From positions 1 through 36,139 of the IMG/VR virus record IMGVR_UViG_3300030108_002106: a DNA stretch of 36,139 nt; one strand, written 5' to 3'. The stretch comes from a virus. The notes under the pieces are model-generated. The model was not told where the DNA came from and ran no database searches. It worked only from the letters and a program-made list of their open reading frames with translations. Below, one piece after another: positions 16,817 to 25,854 of the stretch; position 1 is the stretch's first letter, and every line of letters begins with the position of its first letter. The position numbers and the translations under genes are program-made.

Positions 16817-17368
16817 TTAAATCATCCTTGGTCCATGGCAAAATAAGGTTAAAGTCTTCCTCACACCTTTCGTAACAGGAGTTACCCTATGATTTATGTG
16901 AGATTTAAAGACAATCAAGGAACCTGGAGCACATTGTTTAACAACATAAGGATCTCCCGGCCAAAGCCAAAATTCTCCTCCTTCATAACTATCAGATAAA
17001 TTAGCTATGACTGTAAGTTTACAATCATAAATTTCACTTTTAGAAGAATCATAATGCCAATCATATTTAGCTTTTGTTTTACTGTCATAGATATTTAAAA
17101 GCATAAAATCAGAATGATCAAAGGGCTTAATATGGTAACCGAAATTTTTTAAATTAATATCGTAGATACTATGCTCCATTTCGCCTACAATATCTTTTAT
17201 TTTTTTCCAACCGATAACTAAAGTTTTTGTTTTCTTCTTATCTTGACCTTCATTAGTTTTAGCAGCCTTACCTTCTTTTTCAACAAAGTCATAATTGTTC
17301 TCAATAGTCTTACATATTTGCTTTCTATGTTCGGGGCTAAAATAATCGTTTATATACCAACAATCCAT
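16817..17368 (-). CDS. 2-oxoglutarate/Fe(II) oxygenase 1 (prolyl-4-hydroxylase/PiuC-like)
   Basis: The 183-residue protein shows the double-stranded beta-helix signature: iron ligands H105 and D107 in YDWHYDSS, a YEGGEF turn (128-132), the distal ligand H160 in NHRVTPV, and R170 in TKGVRKTL for the 2-oxoglutarate carboxylate. It should couple decarboxylation of 2-oxoglutarate to hydroxylation of an unknown substrate, probably a protein. The ATG at 17368 is preferred because GGAGA lies upstream; a TTG at 17386 overlaps the previous gene. It is the last oxygenase of the cassette, 41 bases before the stabilization gene. Confidence 0.88.
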   Translation of the reverse strand: MDCWYINDYFSPEHRKQICKTIENNYDFVEKEGKAAKTNEGQDKKKTKTLVIGWKKIKDIVGEMEHSIYDINLKNFGYHIKPFDHSDFMLLNIYDSKTKAKYDWHYDSSKSEIYDCKLTVIANLSDSYEGGEFWLWPGDPYVVKQCAPGSLIVFKSHINHRVTPVTKGVRKTLTLFCHGPRMI

Positions 17369-17369
17369 A

Positions 17370-17705
17370 TTAATCTTTCTCCACAAGTATAGTCCACTCT
17401 AACTCCAAAACCAAGTCTTTTACATATACTTTTTTCTTGTTCTCTTTTTTAACATATTGATGAAGTTCTTCTATGTCAAAAATAAGCCATCGTTTATCCT
17501 CTTCAATAACCATCTTTTCAGCTTGTGAATTAAAACTTCCACTCTGAGCTGGTGTTCCATCTGGTAGTTTTATCATTTCTCTAACATCAAATCTGTAAAA
17601 AGCATTTTTTCCTTTTAATATGCCAGCAATATTCCAAGAAGCTTTTTGTTTAGGATACTCTATGGCTTGTAAATATTTTGAAAATCTATCAACTATATCA
17701 CTCAC
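17370..17705 (-). CDS. Conserved hypothetical protein in the oxygenase cassette (111 aa)
   Basis: A compact, charged protein with the core YRFDVREMIKLPDGTPAQSG, then EKMVIEEDKRWLIFDIEELH and a Lys-rich segment. No known enzyme motif was found. It starts with GTG (17705) sharing a TAGTG with the end of the nucleotidyltransferase-like gene, so it is translationally coupled to it. The constant pairing with oxygenases suggests an accessory role (substrate-binding or scaffold), but nothing in the sequence proves it. Confidence 0.65.
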   Translation of the reverse strand: MSDIVDRFSKYLQAIEYPKQKASWNIAGILKGKNAFYRFDVREMIKLPDGTPAQSGSFNSQAEKMVIEEDKRWLIFDIEELHQYVKKENKKKVYVKDLVLELEWTILVEKD

Positions 17706-18292
17706 TATAAAATCTTACGAGGTTCTTTATAAACAAAACCTTCTTTTTGATATTTAATTAAATTTTTTGTAAAAGGATAAATCTTATCTCCTTCATATAA
17801 ACCATATTTATCTTTTTTCCATTCATACATACTAACTTTTTTATTTCCTTTAGGATCAGTTGTAATAAATTTATTACTTATTTCCCAAGCTTTTATGTTA
17901 AAAGTTTTTCCATCCCACTTAGAAATATTACCACAATTAATCATAACACCTTTAAGTGTTGGTTGAAGATTTACATCAATATAAAACTTATAACTAAATG
18001 CTAGTTTTTTAATAGTGTATAAAATTTTATAAGCCATTAAAGATGGCTTGCCTATCAACACTAAGTCAACATCCCACGATACCCAATCTTCTAGAACTCC
18101 ACCACAAACATATAAATCATAATTCAGAAAACTAATTTTATTTTGTTTTTGTAAACTTTCTAGTTCTCTAACAAAAGCTTGAAATAAGGGATGACGTATT
18201 CCACCTATAGCTAACCAATTTTTACTAGAAAAAGTACCATAACACACAGATCCTTTCCAAAACTCAGTTCTATAGTGATCTTTGATATTCAT
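17705..18292 (-). CDS. Nucleotidyltransferase-fold protein (putative)
   Basis: The 195-residue protein contains the three-part signature of the DNA-polymerase-beta-type nucleotidyltransferase fold: a strand ending in Gly-Gly (YDLYVCGG, G64-G65), a DxD pair followed by hydrophobics (WDVDLVLIG, D74 and D76) and a third acidic residue on a later strand (FYIDVNLQ, D106). All three acidic residues needed for metal binding are present, so activity is plausible: transfer of a nucleotide to a protein, sugar or RNA. The spacing between GG and DxD is short (8 residues). It is embedded between oxygenase 2 (TAATG at 18292) and the 111-residue gene. Confidence 0.6.
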   Translation of the reverse strand: MNIKDHYRTEFWKGSVCYGTFSSKNWLAIGGIRHPLFQAFVRELESLQKQNKISFLNYDLYVCGGVLEDWVSWDVDLVLIGKPSLMAYKILYTIKKLAFSYKFYIDVNLQPTLKGVMINCGNISKWDGKTFNIKAWEISNKFITTDPKGNKKVSMYEWKKDKYGLYEGDKIYPFTKNLIKYQKEGFVYKEPRKIL

Positions 18293-18903
18293 TATAAATT
18301 TAATTCTGATAGACCTTCTCTGCTTCCAATATTTCCTTTTACAAAAGTATTAAAAGCTAAACTAATTCTAAGATTATTATCTTGTTTAGTTTGAACTGAG
18401 TGATTTAGATAAGAAGGGAACAATAATATATCTCCTGATTTAACAGGTATCCACCAAGTAAGAGAGTTCCAAGTATTGTATTTATTTGTTTCAAAATTAA
18501 TTTGAGAGTATTTATTTTTATGAAAAATAATTTTATCGTGAGCTTCCTCTGCTTTTACATATAGAACACCAGACACGATTGAGTTAGGATGTTCGTGAGA
18601 ATGATGATGTTCGCCTTTAACATTATAGTTCAACCATGATTGTGTAATATATGGAGTAATTTTATTATAGGTTGCAAAAATATTTTTATAATATTTATGT
18701 GATTCTTTTGTTAAATCATCTTTTAATTGCTTCAAAGGTTTTTCATTTAATACATAAGAATTAATTGTTTTAGAATTGCCTTCATCCTTTTTCAAATTAT
18801 TTTTTTGTTTATCAAAAAATAAAATTTCTTTTTTAGTAAAATTTCTGTTTAAAGAAGTTTGATACACTGCTGTGGGGAATAACGAGTGAACTATGTCTTT
18901 CAT
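18292..18903 (-). CDS. 2-oxoglutarate/Fe(II) oxygenase 2 (TIGR02466-like)
   Basis: The 203-residue protein matches the small family with an N-terminal FPTAVY segment, a His-rich metal site HHHSHEHPNS followed by SGVLYV (about 99-116), the sequence GDILLFPSYLNH with distal H168, and R179 in LRISLAFN for the cosubstrate. The first metal motif is H-x-H rather than H-x-D, as I recall for this family. The substrate is unknown. The gene is very AT-rich, follows oxygenase 3 after 2 bases without a visible Shine-Dalgarno, and probably depends on translational coupling. Confidence 0.85.
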   Translation of the reverse strand: MKDIVHSLFPTAVYQTSLNRNFTKKEILFFDKQKNNLKKDEGNSKTINSYVLNEKPLKQLKDDLTKESHKYYKNIFATYNKITPYITQSWLNYNVKGEHHHSHEHPNSIVSGVLYVKAEEAHDKIIFHKNKYSQINFETNKYNTWNSLTWWIPVKSGDILLFPSYLNHSVQTKQDNNLRISLAFNTFVKGNIGSREGLSELNL

Positions 18904-18905
18904 AC

Positions 18906-19526
18906 TTATAATAAATTTTTATATTTTTTTAATTTTATGTGTCTAGGAAAACCTATGGAAGGTCTTTGATCATATATAAGATGTTCATTTGTTCCATTAA
19001 TTTCTACGTAATGAAGAAAAATTTGTGTACAATAATTATTTTTTAATATCTCTCTGCCATGAGCTAAATCTGCTCCTTTATAAAGCAACAGATCTCCCGC
19101 TTCTAATTTAATTTCAATTTTCTTTTTATTAGAAATTAAATAAATAGGCCACATACCTCCAGATATATTTAACGTTGCTGATATTTCACAACTTGGTCTA
19201 TCTATGTGTTTTGGTAACACAGCTCCTTTGTCGTAAATTCGCAAATAAGAATAGGTTGGAAAAAGTTTTTTGTTAGTTTTCTTTTCAATCATAGGTCTTA
19301 AATTATTTAAGATAATTTCAGAACCATAATCTCCATAACAAGAATAGTGTCCTTTTGCTAAAGAGTCATGCCATACACCATACCAACTGTTTGTTTCCAA
19401 CATTTTATTTTCATAAAAGTTAGCTACTACATGTCTTTTTAAAAAAATACATTGATTAACAAATGCAGCTAATTCTTTTGATATAGCGTTTCTTACAACT
19501 AAATATTTATTTTTTTTAAAACTCAC
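18906..19526 (-). CDS. 2-oxoglutarate/Fe(II) oxygenase 3
   Basis: The 206-residue protein has H107 and D109 in LPKHIDRPSCEIS, a following strand pair, then GDLLLYKGADLAHGRE with distal H156, and an IFLHYVEI strand. These give the metal triad of the double-stranded beta-helix fold. A clear arginine at the usual cosubstrate position is not obvious (the segment reads NNYCTQIFLHY), so cosubstrate binding may differ. It resembles uncharacterised oxygenases of marine phages. It overlaps the start of the gene upstream (oxygenase 4) by 11 bases. Confidence 0.82.
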   Translation of the reverse strand: MSFKKNKYLVVRNAISKELAAFVNQCIFLKRHVVANFYENKMLETNSWYGVWHDSLAKGHYSCYGDYGSEIILNNLRPMIEKKTNKKLFPTYSYLRIYDKGAVLPKHIDRPSCEISATLNISGGMWPIYLISNKKKIEIKLEAGDLLLYKGADLAHGREILKNNYCTQIFLHYVEINGTNEHLIYDQRPSIGFPRHIKLKKYKNLL

Positions 19527-20046
19527 TTATTTCATTAACTCCTTGTTGGCAAAAAGAATAATAACCAGTTATAATACTTCTTTCTTTTTTTAAATCAGGT
19601 TGACCTTTGTGTGTATGTGTAAAATAAGCAGGGAAAATACATACTCTACCCACTTTACTTTCTATTGTTTGTTTATCTCTATAAAATTCAGTGCCACATT
19701 TGTGTGAGGTTAAATAAATTTGTACACTTAATACTCTATATGGAGTTGTTAAACTTACCTCTGAATGATAATTTTTAAAACTTTGTCCTTTTTTAAAAAG
19801 CTTGTATCTTAATGTGTCTAAAGTCCATTGTGAAGAAGTCATATTTACTTCAGGATAAATTTTAACGTACAGTTTAATTAATTTTTCAAGTTTTTCTAAA
19901 AAATTAAATTCTTGAATTACAATATCATTATAAAAATAATCTAATATCTTATTTGATTTTAAATTTTTTTTATAAGTTTTTATAAGTTTATTACATTCTT
20001 TTGAAGAAAGAACATTATCTTTTACTAATATAAAATTAGAACTCAC
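19516..20046 (-). CDS. 2-oxoglutarate/Fe(II) oxygenase 4 (HxE type)
   Basis: The 176-residue protein has YHSEVS (H94, E96) in place of H-x-D, then VLSVQIYLTSHKCGTEF, VGRVCIFPAYFTHTHKG (H144 or H146 as distal ligand) and R156 in KKERSIITGYYSF. Glutamate as the acidic metal ligand is known in the superfamily but less common. N-terminal SSKECNKLI resembles the start of prolyl-hydroxylase-like domains. Substrate unknown. It shares ATGA with oxygenase 5 upstream. Confidence 0.82.
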   Translation of the reverse strand: MSSNFILVKDNVLSSKECNKLIKTYKKNLKSNKILDYFYNDIVIQEFNFLEKLEKLIKLYVKIYPEVNMTSSQWTLDTLRYKLFKKGQSFKNYHSEVSLTTPYRVLSVQIYLTSHKCGTEFYRDKQTIESKVGRVCIFPAYFTHTHKGQPDLKKERSIITGYYSFCQQGVNEISEF

Positions 20047-20654
20047 TTGAATTGAGGCCCTGTAATCCAGCCAACTAAAGAATATCTGTGTCCTTTAGTA
20101 ACGGGTGTCACTTCATGTAAAGTATAACTAGGAAAAGCTAAAAGTTTTCCTTGCTCTTTAGGTAAACAAGTTGGATCGCCACCAGTGTGTAATTTTAAAT
20201 CGCCACCTTCGTATGTATCTGGGTCGGATAACAACAAAGACATTGATAATTTTCTAACTGGTCCTTTGTACCAAGTATCAATGTGCTTTGTATAAAAATT
20301 ATCGGGTGCTTTATAATACGTAAATTGTAGGCCTTCAATAAAACCAAATAAATCAAATTGATGAAACTCGTTGTTTAATCCTGTTACTATATCTGTCAAT
20401 CTTCTAAAAATCCAATCAGTTTCGGCACTTGGCCACATCCAATTAATCTTAGACAACCTAGCTTTTGGTTCCACTCCGTTTCGAACTGCACCATCTACCA
20501 TTGCAAATTGTTTACCTAATTTAATTATTTTTTTACACTCTTCTTTTGAAAATGCGTTGGAGTAATAAGAAAAAGACTCGATGGAATCAGGTTTAAATGG
20601 CCATGATGATGGACCATGTTTAATGCTTTGTTTCTTCTTTTCTTTCTTTTTCAT
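20043..20654 (-). CDS. 2-oxoglutarate/Fe(II) oxygenase 5 (PiuC/prolyl-4-hydroxylase-like)
   Basis: The 203-residue protein starts with a lysine-rich tail (1-12), then FSKEECKKIIKLG, the metal site KHIDTW (H124, D126), RKLSMSLLLSDPDTYEGGDL, the distal ligand H180 in FPSYTLHEVTPV and R190 in TKGHRYSLVGW. This is the clearest prolyl-4-hydroxylase/PiuC-type member of the cassette and is most similar to oxygenase 1 (shared EGG and H-x-V-TPVTKG-x-R elements). It is the first gene of the cassette; no good ribosome site is seen, and an AT-rich inverted repeat lies just upstream. Confidence 0.9.
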   Translation of the reverse strand: MKKKEKKKQSIKHGPSSWPFKPDSIESFSYYSNAFSKEECKKIIKLGKQFAMVDGAVRNGVEPKARLSKINWMWPSAETDWIFRRLTDIVTGLNNEFHQFDLFGFIEGLQFTYYKAPDNFYTKHIDTWYKGPVRKLSMSLLLSDPDTYEGGDLKLHTGGDPTCLPKEQGKLLAFPSYTLHEVTPVTKGHRYSLVGWITGPQFK

Positions 20655-22034: not shown

Positions 22035-23105
22035 TTACGCGAACTGTGTTTGAGCTGCGAACGCTGTAAAAGCAGCATCGCCAGTTTTAATTACAGTGTA
22101 CGTGTAAATATCAACAGAGTTAGCGTTACCAGCTGTTGGCGCAGCACCGCCTTGCCATTCTGGAGTTACGCTTGATCCATCGATTGTAAAAGCGTTATTG
22201 TAATAAGGAGTGCCTGTATTTGTTGTTAAGAAAGCAAAAGTTACAGACTCGCCTGTATCCATAATATTATTTAAAGAGTTTGATCCATCACCTCTAACAT
22301 TAACTGTAAAGTTACCTGCTGAAGCAGATGTGTGGTAAAGAACAGCTTGTGTAATTAAATCATAGTTTACTGTTCCAGTTGTACCCGTTGCAGCGATAGT
22401 TACTTTTTCTGCTAGTTGCTGAATTTTACCAGCTCCTAAAGTTACTCTTCCAATTCCTTTTGGACTTATAGTTAAGTCGATGTTTGAATCGCCACCTGTT
22501 GCAGATACGCTTGGACTGTTACTTGTCGCTGCGTTAGTAACTGATATTTCGTTAACTGCTGAACCCGTTGTAGCAAATTTAATTTGCTCATTTCCGTTTT
22601 CATCATTAATTGATTTTGTATTATCGATGATAATATTTTGACCGTTAGTATCTAAGTCAGCTGAAAGTTGTGGCGAGAAGTCTGAAGATAATTCTGTGAA
22701 AGCTGTATCTACAATGTCAGTACCATCACCATAGACCATTTTAGTTCCTTTGTCAGCTGCAGCCCATACTACTCCAGATCCTGAAGTTGTTTTGACTGTT
22801 ACTGAGTAAGCGCCTGAAGTGGCATTGTCTACGATGTAAACTTTTTCTACTACAGGAACAACTACGTTAACGTTTGTTGTAATAGTTCCAGTTAATTTTA
22901 ATACTGCATTTTTACCATTAGAAACCGCACCATTTGAAACTGTTAATGTTGCTCCAGTCGTAGCATTAAGTGCAACAGCTTCAAAACCAGCGATTGCTTG
23001 TTCTACGATTAATAAGTTTGTATTTGTAATTTGTCCCCACGTTCCCGAGTTTTCACCGGTTGCTTGGACTGTAAGTTTCAAAAAACTTGATGTTGAATTC
23101 GCCAT
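22035..23105 (-). CDS. Tail fibre protein (356 aa)
   Basis: The N-terminus has FLKLTVQATGENSGTWGQIT, a widespread anchor motif of marine phage fibres (LxxPAxGxNxGTWG-like). It is followed by beta-rich Thr/Ser/Val/Asn sequence, an ADLDTNGQNI segment and an SPKGIGRVTLGAG segment, both common in fibre shafts. The C-terminus FAAQTQFA is a frequent end of the same class. It probably forms the fibre shaft to which the glycine-rich adhesin, encoded 20 bases downstream, attaches. Confidence 0.8.
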   Translation of the reverse strand: MANSTSSFLKLTVQATGENSGTWGQITNTNLLIVEQAIAGFEAVALNATTGATLTVSNGAVSNGKNAVLKLTGTITTNVNVVVPVVEKVYIVDNATSGAYSVTVKTTSGSGVVWAAADKGTKMVYGDGTDIVDTAFTELSSDFSPQLSADLDTNGQNIIIDNTKSINDENGNEQIKFATTGSAVNEISVTNAATSNSPSVSATGGDSNIDLTISPKGIGRVTLGAGKIQQLAEKVTIAATGTTGTVNYDLITQAVLYHTSASAGNFTVNVRGDGSNSLNNIMDTGESVTFAFLTTNTGTPYYNNAFTIDGSSVTPEWQGGAAPTAGNANSVDIYTYTVIKTGDAAFTAFAAQTQFA

Positions 23106-23139: not shown

Positions 23140-24717
23140 TTAAGCTGCGGTGTCAACCTCTCTCCACGTAGCGGTTGTGCCGGTATCAACGGTTTCCCAG
23201 ATTAAAGCATTAAGCGATCCAGTAGACATTGTCAAGTTATTTCCTGTTAAACTTACTGTCCCCGTTCCTTCTAAACTTACACTACCGAGAGTGCTTGTCA
23301 AGGTAATTCCTGAAGGAGAAGCGATAGTATTTGGTGTTCCTGGAGCAGTTCCAAGGGTCATTGTCATGCTTATTCCAGAAGGAGCTACTTGTATCGAATC
23401 AGATACTCCACCCCAGTCTAAAGCACCCCATGTAGATCTACCCCAACCAGCGTTAATTTCACTAGATATTCCTACATCTGCAACAGTAGGTGTTAAATTA
23501 AATCCTACTAAATCAGCTTTATCATTTCCATCATTATTCCATAAACCTTGACCCCATTCTTTTCTACCCCAACCAACATTAACTTCAGCATCTGTTGTTA
23601 CAGAGCCAAGAGTCATAGGTAAAGAGAAGCTTCCTGTAACTAATGTTCCAGGTATACCCCAACCTAATCTACCCCATTGTTGTCTGCCCCAACCGGTATT
23701 AACTTCGTTTGTTATAGATACTGAACCTAAAGTTGCGGATAAACTAAATGTGCCTACAGCACCTGCTTCGTTTGGAGATCCCCAAGTTTGAGCTCCCCAT
23801 TCAGTTCTGCCCCAACCGGTATTAACTTCACCTGAAGAACCTTCGTTTCCTAAACTTAAACTTAAAGGGAATCCTGTGACTTGAACATCTAATACAGTTT
23901 CATTTAATCCCCATGGTTCATTACCCCATTCAGCTCTGCCCCATCCTGTATTAACTTGAGTTCCAATAGTTACAGATCCAAGGCTTGAAGACATTTGAAT
24001 ACCAGTTGGTAAAACAGTTCCAAAAACTCCCCATGATCCTGTATTCCAAGCATCTCTACCCCATCCTGTATTTATTTCTGATCCAATAGTTACACTTCCT
24101 AGAGAAGCTGACATTCCTATGCCATTTGGAAAAGCATCAGTATTTGTAGCTGCACCCCACTGATCGGCTCCCCAAGTTCTTCTACCCCAACCAGCGTTTA
24201 CTTCAGCGTCAGTAGTAACGCTTTGTAAACTTAAACTTAATGGAAATCCTGTTACTTGAGGAGCAGCATTATCTTGATCGCCCCACTGTCCTGTACTCCA
24301 ACTTAATGATGACCATCCATCGTTAACAATATCAACCTCTCCTCCCATTCTGAGGCCGTGATAAAAACAATAATAATAAAAATCGGTTGCGCTTGCAGGA
24401 GTAATTTCTACGTATCGAGTTGTTGCTGAATTAAAAGATCCGCTAGCGTAAGAAGAATAAGGGACCGTTGATCCATCTAAATTATAAACAACCCCTGTTT
24501 CTATTCTTCCTGAGTTAGGATTAGAGGAATCAGTAGTAAATAATAATGGATGGCCATCGTTTGTGGCATCGTCTTGATTAAATCTTAAAGTAGCACCTTG
24601 TGTCCACGTAATATCTAAATCACGAACACCGTCTAAATAATAAACGCTACCTGTGCCCGTGCCTGACGGATATAGAGTTCCGGAAGCGACCGTGACTGTG
24701 TAAGTTTTATCCGCCAT
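23140..24717 (-). CDS. Tail fibre-like protein with cupredoxin-like N-terminus and seven Trp-rich repeats (525 aa)
   Basis: Residues about 26-132 look like a single beta-sandwich domain with the spacing of a type 1 copper site: H56 in NDGHPLLF and C117, H120, M124 in YYYCFYHGLRMGG (Cys-x2-His-x3-Met). Residues 135-435 contain a degenerate and then seven clear GWGR repeats (at 176, 218, 258, 301, 342, 382, 424) with a 40-43 residue period. The C-terminal 90 residues are Thr/Ser-rich beta sequence with more TLGSV elements. The gene lies between adaptor-type genes and fibre genes, so it is almost certainly a virion protein of the tail. Confidence 0.75.
   Translation of the reverse strand: MADKTYTVTVASGTLYPSGTGTGSVYYLDGVRDLDITWTQGATLRFNQDDATNDGHPLLFTTDSSNPNSGRIETGVVYNLDGSTVPYSSYASGSFNSATTRYVEITPASATDFYYYCFYHGLRMGGEVDIVNDGWSSLSWSTGQWGDQDNAAPQVTGFPLSLSLQSVTTDAEVNAGWGRRTWGADQWGAATNTDAFPNGIGMSASLGSVTIGSEINTGWGRDAWNTGSWGVFGTVLPTGIQMSSSLGSVTIGTQVNTGWGRAEWGNEPWGLNETVLDVQVTGFPLSLSLGNEGSSGEVNTGWGRTEWGAQTWGSPNEAGAVGTFSLSATLGSVSITNEVNTGWGRQQWGRLGWGIPGTLVTGSFSLPMTLGSVTTDAEVNVGWGRKEWGQGLWNNDGNDKADLVGFNLTPTVADVGISSEINAGWGRSTWGALDWGGVSDSIQVAPSGISMTMTLGTAPGTPNTIASPSGITLTSTLGSVSLEGTGTVSLTGNNLTMSTGSLNALIWETVDTGTTATWREVDTAA
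23413..24192 (-). repeat. Seven tandem protein-coding repeats (about 120-130 bp each)
   Basis: Each unit encodes a GWGR-x2-W(G)-x3-W(G) element followed by a variable linker, a small beta segment such as SLSLGSV or ATLGSV, and a hydrophilic E-(V/I)-N-(T/A) before the next unit. Units differ at many codons, so the array is old and not a recent slippage product. Confidence 0.8.
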
Positions 24718-24733
24718 AGGAGGTTCCTCCTAT
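24716..24733 (-). promoter_or_regulatory. Shine-Dalgarno embedded in an inverted repeat
   Basis: ATAGGAGG, two bases, CCTCCTAT forms a perfect 8-bp inverted repeat whose minus-strand reading contains AGGAGG (24731-24726) 8 bases before the ATG at 24717, followed directly by the complementary CCTCCT. Folding as seven base pairs with a GAAC tetraloop would hide both the ribosome site and the start. The upstream stop codon (24735-24733) touches the hairpin, so a terminating ribosome could open it. Confidence 0.55.
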
Positions 24734-25191
24734 TATCCGGATATTCTTAATATCGCTGCTGAAGTTGTAAATGCTGGAAACTGAATAGTAAACGTTCCTG
24801 ATGTTGCAGTTTTATCACCACCAAAATCTAAAACTACTACGGCATCAGTTGTACCTGAACCTGCTCCCATAGTTGTGTTGTAGATTAATGCACCTCTTGC
24901 TGTAAGAGTTACACCTGTGAAAGATAAATCAGCAAAGTCAGTTATCGCTACGCCAGAAGCTACTGATGTTCCTGTGTTGACTAACGCTTTCCCACCTTGA
25001 GTGTAAGTCCCTGTGTTAGAAACTTGGTTTCCTGTACTATCACCTGGGTAAGTTGTCGTTGAAGAATTTAAAGTAGCGGAACTTGTGTAAAGCGCTAATT
25101 TATAAGTGTCACCACCGGTTTGTTTGAAACTGTGGTCTCCATCTAAAAGTTCTTTTTTAAAACTGTTACATACTGCTTGCGTTATTGCCAT
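24733..25191 (-). CDS. Conserved phage structural protein (152 aa)
   Basis: The start MAITQAVCNSFKKELLDGDH, the KLALYTSSATLN segment, and the block FADLSFTGVTLTARGALIYN followed by VVLDFGGDKTATSGTFTIQFP belong to a common family of marine phage virion proteins, probably a small beta-sandwich tail or head-tail component. No enzymatic motif. An AAGGAGT ribosome site precedes ATG 25191. The stop at 24733 lies at the base of the hairpin controlling the next gene. Confidence 0.75.
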   Translation of the reverse strand: MAITQAVCNSFKKELLDGDHSFKQTGGDTYKLALYTSSATLNSSTTTYPGDSTGNQVSNTGTYTQGGKALVNTGTSVASGVAITDFADLSFTGVTLTARGALIYNTTMGAGSGTTDAVVVLDFGGDKTATSGTFTIQFPAFTTSAAILRISG

Positions 25192-25200
25192 AAAAACTCC

Positions 25201-25854
25201 TTATTGTTTTCCAATTCGAGGAACACCACTTTGATATTCGTCTCGTCTTCGTCTCCCCATTTGCTCGATTGAGAATCCTTTGACTGCCTCAACGTATTTT
25301 TTATCATAATGTTGTAACATGTCAAGCGGACCTTTCAAGAATCCGTATGCCTCTACTAGGCAAGCATACAATAAGCCATTGGGAAATTTTTCGCTTAAGT
25401 ATGTAGTAGCATTTGTACTAGATAATCCTTGAGGTTTCAAGATATAATTTAACTGAATTGTGTATGTAGCATTAGGGACCGGGGCAAAAACTAAATGGCT
25501 CTCATCCCAATAGCTATAGTATTTCGGTACACCTGTTGCATCAGATTTGTTATATTCTGCCATAAAATTAGTATCTCTATAGTCTAAAAAGTCTCTTTCA
25601 GTGCCTGCTCCTACACCACTAGAATCTACAATTTGAGCAGATCTGACAATTAAAAGGTCAGATGGATTTTGTACATATCTTTGATCAACGGTCAACAATG
25701 CTGTCGCATAAAATCTATTATTATCAGAGTCTACGTCTCTAAGCAGTCTAAATTCAGCGTCTTGAATAAAACCATTTAAAATAGTGTCAGTAAAAACATT
25801 ACTGTCAACCTCTGTATAATCTTTAATTTTTGTTTTTAATTCATCGTATGTCAT
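25201..25854 (-). CDS. Head-tail adaptor protein (SU10-type adaptor-like)
   Basis: The 217-residue, mainly helical protein begins MTYDELKTKIKDYTEVDSNV and has FIQDAEFRLLRDVD, then a beta part with PKYYSYWDESHLVFAPVP and YTIQLNYILKP, and a helical end with FPNGLLYACLVEAYGFLKGP. This succession is that of phage adaptor proteins that bind below the portal ring (T7 gp11 / SU10 adaptor type). It shares ATGA with the upstream gene at 25851-25854. The very basic MGRRRRDEY segment near the C-terminus could contact DNA or the portal. Confidence 0.8.
   Translation of the reverse strand: MTYDELKTKIKDYTEVDSNVFTDTILNGFIQDAEFRLLRDVDSDNNRFYATALLTVDQRYVQNPSDLLIVRSAQIVDSSGVGAGTERDFLDYRDTNFMAEYNKSDATGVPKYYSYWDESHLVFAPVPNATYTIQLNYILKPQGLSSTNATTYLSEKFPNGLLYACLVEAYGFLKGPLDMLQHYDKKYVEAVKGFSIEQMGRRRRDEYQSGVPRIGKQ

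What the first reader, a model, noticed from the sequence alone, without database searches (positions are those of the whole stretch)
24322..24630. Copper-site-like (cupredoxin-type) domain at the start of a tail fibre-like protein
Residues 56, 117, 120 and 124 of the 525-residue protein are His, Cys, His and Met with Cys-x2-His-x3-Met spacing at the end of a domain of about 100 residues, preceded by a GHPLLF element. This is the ligand pattern of type 1 copper proteins. A copper or other metal site on a phage tail is unexpected and could serve stabilisation, redox sensing or receptor contact.
Basis: partly seen in the sequence, partly recalled or inferred. Interest (0 to 1): 0.7.

Follow-up and report, generated by a model that had tools for sequence, protein, structure and literature searches.

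The report
Copper-protein domain on phage tail
A tail-region protein of a marine virus that probably infects SAR11 bacteria begins with a domain that has the fold and the four conserved metal-gripping residues of blue copper proteins; the same domain recurs in tail and baseplate proteins of many ocean phages, which hints that marine virus particles carry copper.

Summary
Protein 23140-24717(-) begins with a ~130-residue domain with His56, Cys117, His120 and Met124. These include the only Cys and only His residues in 525 aa. AlphaFold2 gives a confident model (pLDDT 92.4), and all 45 PDB matches with E<=0.001 are cupredoxins or proteins built of cupredoxin domains (AcoP, rusticyanin, nitrite reductases, laccases, factor VIII). 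Profile comparison with plastocyanin-like proteins aligns all four ligands (E 4e-6; controls 0.07 or worse). Of 155 distinct viral copies, 146 keep His-Cys-His-Met, one has Gln in place of Met (as in stellacyanin), and eight lose Cys, nearly always with other ligands. The domain occurs in baseplate wedge, tail-fibre-connector and tail-fibre proteins of marine cyanophages, pelagiphages and Methylophilales phages. In this tail slot it is an optional N-terminal module: HTVC027P and eight other contigs have the same neighbours and Trp-repeat protein without it. Best reading: a new viral cupredoxin family with a type-1-like copper site, used as a virion module. Copper binding is inferred, not measured; the biological role is open. 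No description was found in the papers searched.

The parts
23140..24717 (-). 525-aa virion tail-region protein: N-terminal cupredoxin-type domain followed by Trp-rich repeats
24319..24717 (-). cupredoxin-type domain, residues 1-133
   Evidence: AF2 pLDDT 92.4; Foldseek/VIA matches to cupredoxins; family alignment
24550..24552 (-). His56 codon, proposed N-terminal copper ligand (in GHPLLF)
   Evidence: conserved in 149 of 155 copies
24367..24369 (-). Cys117 codon, proposed thiolate ligand; only Cys in the protein
   Evidence: conserved in 147 of 155 copies
24358..24360 (-). His120 codon, proposed second His ligand
   Evidence: conserved in 148 of 155 copies
24346..24348 (-). Met124 codon, proposed axial ligand
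   Evidence: conserved in 148 of 155 copies; Gln in one copy
23398..24315 (-). Trp-rich repeat region (W-x4-W-x4-W about every 40-43 residues, 8 copies), shared with HTVC027P gp68
   Evidence: poor AF2 model
24733..25191 (-). upstream syntenic structural-region gene (phrog_644)
25201..25854 (-). SU10-type adaptor protein (PF24175), syntenic
22035..23105 (-). downstream syntenic tail gene (phrog_31104; weak hits to tail fibre families)

Best explanation
The first ~130 residues form a cupredoxin-fold domain with an intact type-1-like site (His56, Cys117, His120, Met124) that binds one metal ion, most likely copper. It is a detachable module placed in front of a Trp-repeat tail-region protein, and its relatives sit in baseplate wedge, tail-fibre-connector and tail-fibre proteins of marine phages. 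The most likely role is a metal-locked binding or docking module on the virion surface. The apo domain is made in the reducing host cytoplasm, takes up Cu(I)/Cu(II) during lysis or in seawater, and the metal rigidifies the loop that carries Cys-His-Met, either to hold a contact surface or to contact a host envelope component. Shown: sequence, fold prediction, conservation and modularity. Inferred: metal binding, copper identity, virion location. Conjecture: the docking role. My estimates: cupredoxin fold 0.95, functional metal site 0.85, copper as the physiological metal 0.75, structural/docking rather than electron-transfer role about 0.6.
For: Confident AF2 model. All 45 PDB hits with E<=0.001 are cupredoxins or multi-cupredoxin proteins; VIA Z 8-9 over 103-110 residues to nitrite reductase, rusticyanin and small laccases, Z 7.7 to Synechococcus plastocyanin and 7.6 to a Nitrosopumilus purple cupredoxin. 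Profile-profile alignment with Copper-bind (PF00127) plastocyanin-like proteins: E 4e-6, probability 87%, His/Cys/His/Met in register; 40 column-shuffled controls and one reversed control at E 0.07 to 0.95. Single relatives hit the NCBIfam plastocyanin (1.1e-4) and amicyanin (7e-3) models and Pfam SoxE (5e-4). Ligands 146/155 intact, one Met-to-Gln, and co-loss of ligands across 28 clusters (Fisher p 7e-5, 7e-6, 5e-4 for His1, His2, Met against Cys). The only Cys and both His of the protein are ligands. Presence/absence of the domain at a fixed syntenic slot. Tail/baseplate annotation of relatives.
Against: No metal was measured and side-chain distances in the model could not be read. VIA Z of about 8 is near the background this tool warns of, so the case rests on Foldseek, profiles and ligand co-conservation together. 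Degenerate copies without ligands persist next to intact ones (L051, L171, L172, L173, L175), so the fold does not need the metal. No redox partner or copper-handling gene was recognised among the window proteins scanned. The Fisher test treats clusters as independent, which related sequences are not. Some loci were fetched with peptide patterns that include ligand residues, so the 146/155 figure leans high.
Confidence: 0.7

Rival explanations
1. The domain binds a metal other than copper in vivo (zinc, or iron in the sense of the Ferrojan horse idea), or is mostly apo; the site serves stability or receptor mimicry with that metal.
For: Cys/His sites also bind zinc; phage T4 gp37 carries iron through HxH motifs and marine phages are proposed as iron ligands (PMC11705849). 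The host of the relative HTVC027P raises iron uptake genes on infection (PMC12753301).
Against: A His/Cys/His/Met set on a cupredoxin fold, with Gln as the natural replacement of Met, is the type-1 copper signature. It has no HxH pairs as in gp37.
Confidence: 0.15
2. The copper site is redox active in infection: it accepts or donates an electron with a host envelope redox protein (or senses redox state or copper), triggering attachment or tail conformational change.
For: All four electron-transfer ligands kept under strong constraint; most named relatives infect photosynthetic cyanobacteria.
Against: No partner known; the domain also occurs in phages of heterotrophs (Pelagibacter, Methylophilales); intact and dead copies are mixed in one protein.
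Confidence: 0.15
3. The cupredoxin fold is used only as a generic immunoglobulin-like spacer and the four residues are conserved for packing, not metal.
For: Degenerate copies show the fold is usable without ligands; Ig-like spacers are common on tails.
Against: Ligands are lost together rather than one by one, and the single exception is Met to Gln; a lone Cys and two His otherwise absent from the protein.
Confidence: 0.08

Closest known systems
Cupredoxins: plastocyanin/pseudoazurin/amicyanin (PF00127), rusticyanin, AcoP
   Same: Predicted fold; His ... Cys-x2-His-xn-Met ligands in register with plastocyanin-like proteins
   Different: Part of a viral tail-region protein, not a free exported electron carrier; low sequence identity (7-18% to the PDB hits listed); loop length x3 here, mostly x2 in the family; optional or tandem in tail proteins, sometimes degenerate
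PHROG 708 (cyanophage baseplate wedge subunit), PHROG 677 (baseplate wedge tail fibre connector), PHROG 30742 (tail fibre)
   Same: Carry the same domain internally; homologous in sequence
   Different: Large multi-domain baseplate or fibre proteins of cyanophages; not annotated as copper proteins in these records
Pelagibacter phage HTVC027P gp68
   Same: Same gene slot and same Trp-repeat region
   Different: Lacks the cupredoxin domain entirely
Iron-binding HxH sites of T4 gp37 and marine tail fibres (Ferrojan horse hypothesis)
   Same: Metal ions carried on phage tails (PMC11705849)
   Different: Different fold and ligands; octahedral iron by HxH motifs in tail fibres

Membership tests
Cupredoxin superfamily | Greek-key beta-sandwich of the cupredoxin type | tested here: met
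   AF2 model pLDDT 92.4; all 45 Foldseek PDB hits at E<=0.001 are cupredoxin-containing; VIA Z 8-9
Type 1 (blue) copper proteins | Conserved His, Cys, His and axial Met/Gln in the right order and positions | tested here: met
   155-copy alignment; profile alignment to PF00127 relatives in register
Type 1 (blue) copper proteins | Four ligands within bonding distance in the structure | not testable with these tools
   model coordinates not available; topology from DSSP is consistent
Type 1 (blue) copper proteins | Bound copper with ~600 nm (or ~450 nm) charge-transfer absorption | not testable with these tools
   needs protein
Pfam PF00127 Copper-bind | Score above gathering cut-off | tested here: not met
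   no Pfam hit for the window domain above cut-off; one of 24 relatives at E 0.061. It is therefore a separate family within the superfamily, not filed as PF00127
Phage tail or baseplate protein | Located in virion tail | tested here: inconclusive
   gene order in the tail region and tail/baseplate annotation of relatives; no proteomics for this virus

The most novel reading that the evidence does not exclude
Marine phages of cyanobacteria, SAR11 and Methylophilales carry copper in dedicated cupredoxin domains on tails and baseplates, and use it in host contact or as a redox or copper-dependent trigger; virions would then be a copper pool in seawater.
Probability: 0.3. Interest if true: 0.9.

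Novelty: new variant of a known kind. Interest (0 to 1): 0.72.

Why it matters
If the domains bind copper, a class of very abundant ocean viruses carries a transition-metal cofactor on the machinery that contacts the host. That would extend the iron-only Ferrojan horse idea to copper, give a possible receptor or trigger logic for cyanophage and pelagiphage baseplates, and make virions part of the marine copper budget. It is directly testable with one 130-residue domain.

Tried and rejected
Pfam and NCBIfam give nothing above cut-off for the window domain itself; the weak Vel1p hit (E 0.054) is taken as chance. The single-sequence PDB hit to a pectate lyase chain (8wc1, E 0.002) does not cover the ligands as a set and vanished with the profile. 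The full-length AF2 model is unusable (pLDDT 39), so nothing is said about the fold of the Trp repeats. The azurin-like profile aligned only weakly. Homologues in cellular genomes are few, mostly short contigs of marine MAGs or single cells, probably viral; a cellular origin was not traced. Literature searches pairing cupredoxin or copper terms with phage, cyanophage, baseplate or pelagiphage found no report of such a domain; the library holds open-licence papers only. An auxiliary-metabolism role (phage plastocyanin, petE) was rejected because the domain is fused to structural proteins.

Full report
What is there. The window is a whole IMG/VR virus record of 36,139 bases. Its structural genes match Pelagibacter phage HTVC027P in the same order, with the major capsid protein 87% identical, so it is most likely a pelagiphage; the host is inferred. 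Protein 23140-24717(-) has 525 residues. Residues 1-133 form a domain. The rest is Trp-rich repeats (W-x4-W-x4-W every 40-43 residues) that HTVC027P gp68 shares.

The observation. They include the only Cys and both His of the protein, a composition kept in 12 of 13 aligned full-length proteins. The C-x2-H-x2..4-M pattern occurs once in the open frames of the window.

Fold. AF2 with 24 homologues gives mean pLDDT 92.4 and pTM 0.87. Foldseek against the PDB gives 45 hits with E<=0.001; all are cupredoxins or multi-cupredoxin proteins, led by AcoP and rusticyanin. VIA-align gives Z 9.0 to the N-terminal part of Hyphomicrobium nitrite reductase and about 8 to rusticyanin and small laccases. Z of 8 alone would be weak by the tool's own yardstick; the uniformity of the list and the sequence evidence carry it. 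In the DSSP string Cys117 ends the penultimate strand, His120 lies in the turn and Met124 in the last strand, while His56 precedes strand 58-61, as in cupredoxins (the comparison is from general knowledge). Inter-ligand distances were not available.

Sequence membership. A profile of the family aligned to plastocyanin/pseudoazurin-like proteins gathered by PF00127 from bacterial genomes gives E 4e-6, with His-Cys-His-Met in register; 40 column shuffles and one reversal give E 0.07 to 0.95. Some relatives hit NCBIfam plastocyanin and amicyanin and Pfam SoxE weakly. The window domain passes no curated cut-off, so this is an undescribed family of the superfamily rather than a PF00127 member.

Ligand conservation. 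Among 155 distinct copies, 146 are HCHM. One (cyanophage P-RSM6) is HCHQ; Gln is the axial ligand of stellacyanin (general knowledge). Eight lack Cys. In 28 clusters at 60% identity, every copy with Cys keeps both His, while Cys-less copies keep His1 in 2 of 8 and His2 in 1 of 8 (Fisher p 7e-5 and 7e-6). In T4-like cyanophages a single baseplate protein carries an intact copy followed by a degenerate copy (L051, L171, L172, L173, L175), and the neighbouring gp9-type connector carries another intact copy in the four named phages. Some fetch patterns contained ligand residues, and relatedness inflates the Fisher values; both are caveats to the size of the effect, not its direction.

Distribution and modularity. 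tblastn finds the domain in 235 and 186 phage records with two different queries, of Synechococcus, Prochlorococcus, Pelagibacter and Methylophilales phages and unnamed marine phages. Viral contigs gave 50 loci with the window protein, and at least 595 matching stretches with a shorter-loop relative. PHROGs with the domain are baseplate wedge subunit, tail fibre connector, tail fibre and virion structural protein. In the window's gene slot the order adaptor, phrog_644 gene, Trp-repeat protein, tail gene is constant, but the cupredoxin domain is present in the window's clade and in L018, L021, L023, L024 (two tandem copies) and L025, and absent in HTVC027P, L027-L032, L035 and L038. It behaves as an exchangeable module.

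Mechanism. Best supported: a virion-borne cupredoxin binding one copper per domain. Since the fold survives without ligands, the metal is not simply needed for folding; where it is kept it is under strong selection, so it probably fixes the Cys-His-Met loop for a contact or takes part in host interaction. Electron transfer has no identified partner. Other metals are possible until measured.

Known or new. The fold and site are textbook; a cupredoxin family on phage tails and baseplates was not found in the searchable literature. The nearest published idea is iron on tail fibres (PMC11705849; discussed for HTVC027P in PMC12753301).

Noticed in passing
16817-20654: Cluster of 2OG-Fe(II) oxygenase-like genes next to the tail genes: 16817-17386 (PF13640), 18292-18903 (PF13759), 20043-20654 (PF13640) above cut-off, 19516-20046 (PF13640) just below it, and 18906-19526 of similar size without a Pfam hit. 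Several diverse oxygenases in one 36-kb phage record is notable; they might modify tail proteins or DNA.
   Followed up: partly
L171:2815 frame, L172:2794 frame, L173:2812 frame, L175:2287 frame: T4-like cyanophage baseplate proteins carry one intact and one ligand-less cupredoxin copy in the same order in each genome.
   Followed up: partly
L169 4498-4836: Cyanophage PSS2 gp080 is a stand-alone 112-residue version of the domain without the His/Cys ligands, downstream of the tape-measure genes.
   Followed up: no
L024 782-1717 and 3307-4005 (+): One contig has three copies: two in tandem at the start of the Trp-repeat protein and a third at the end of a separate upstream protein.
   Followed up: no
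23398-24315 (-): Eight W-x4-W-x4-W repeats at 40-43 residue spacing of unknown fold; no Pfam family.
   Followed up: partly
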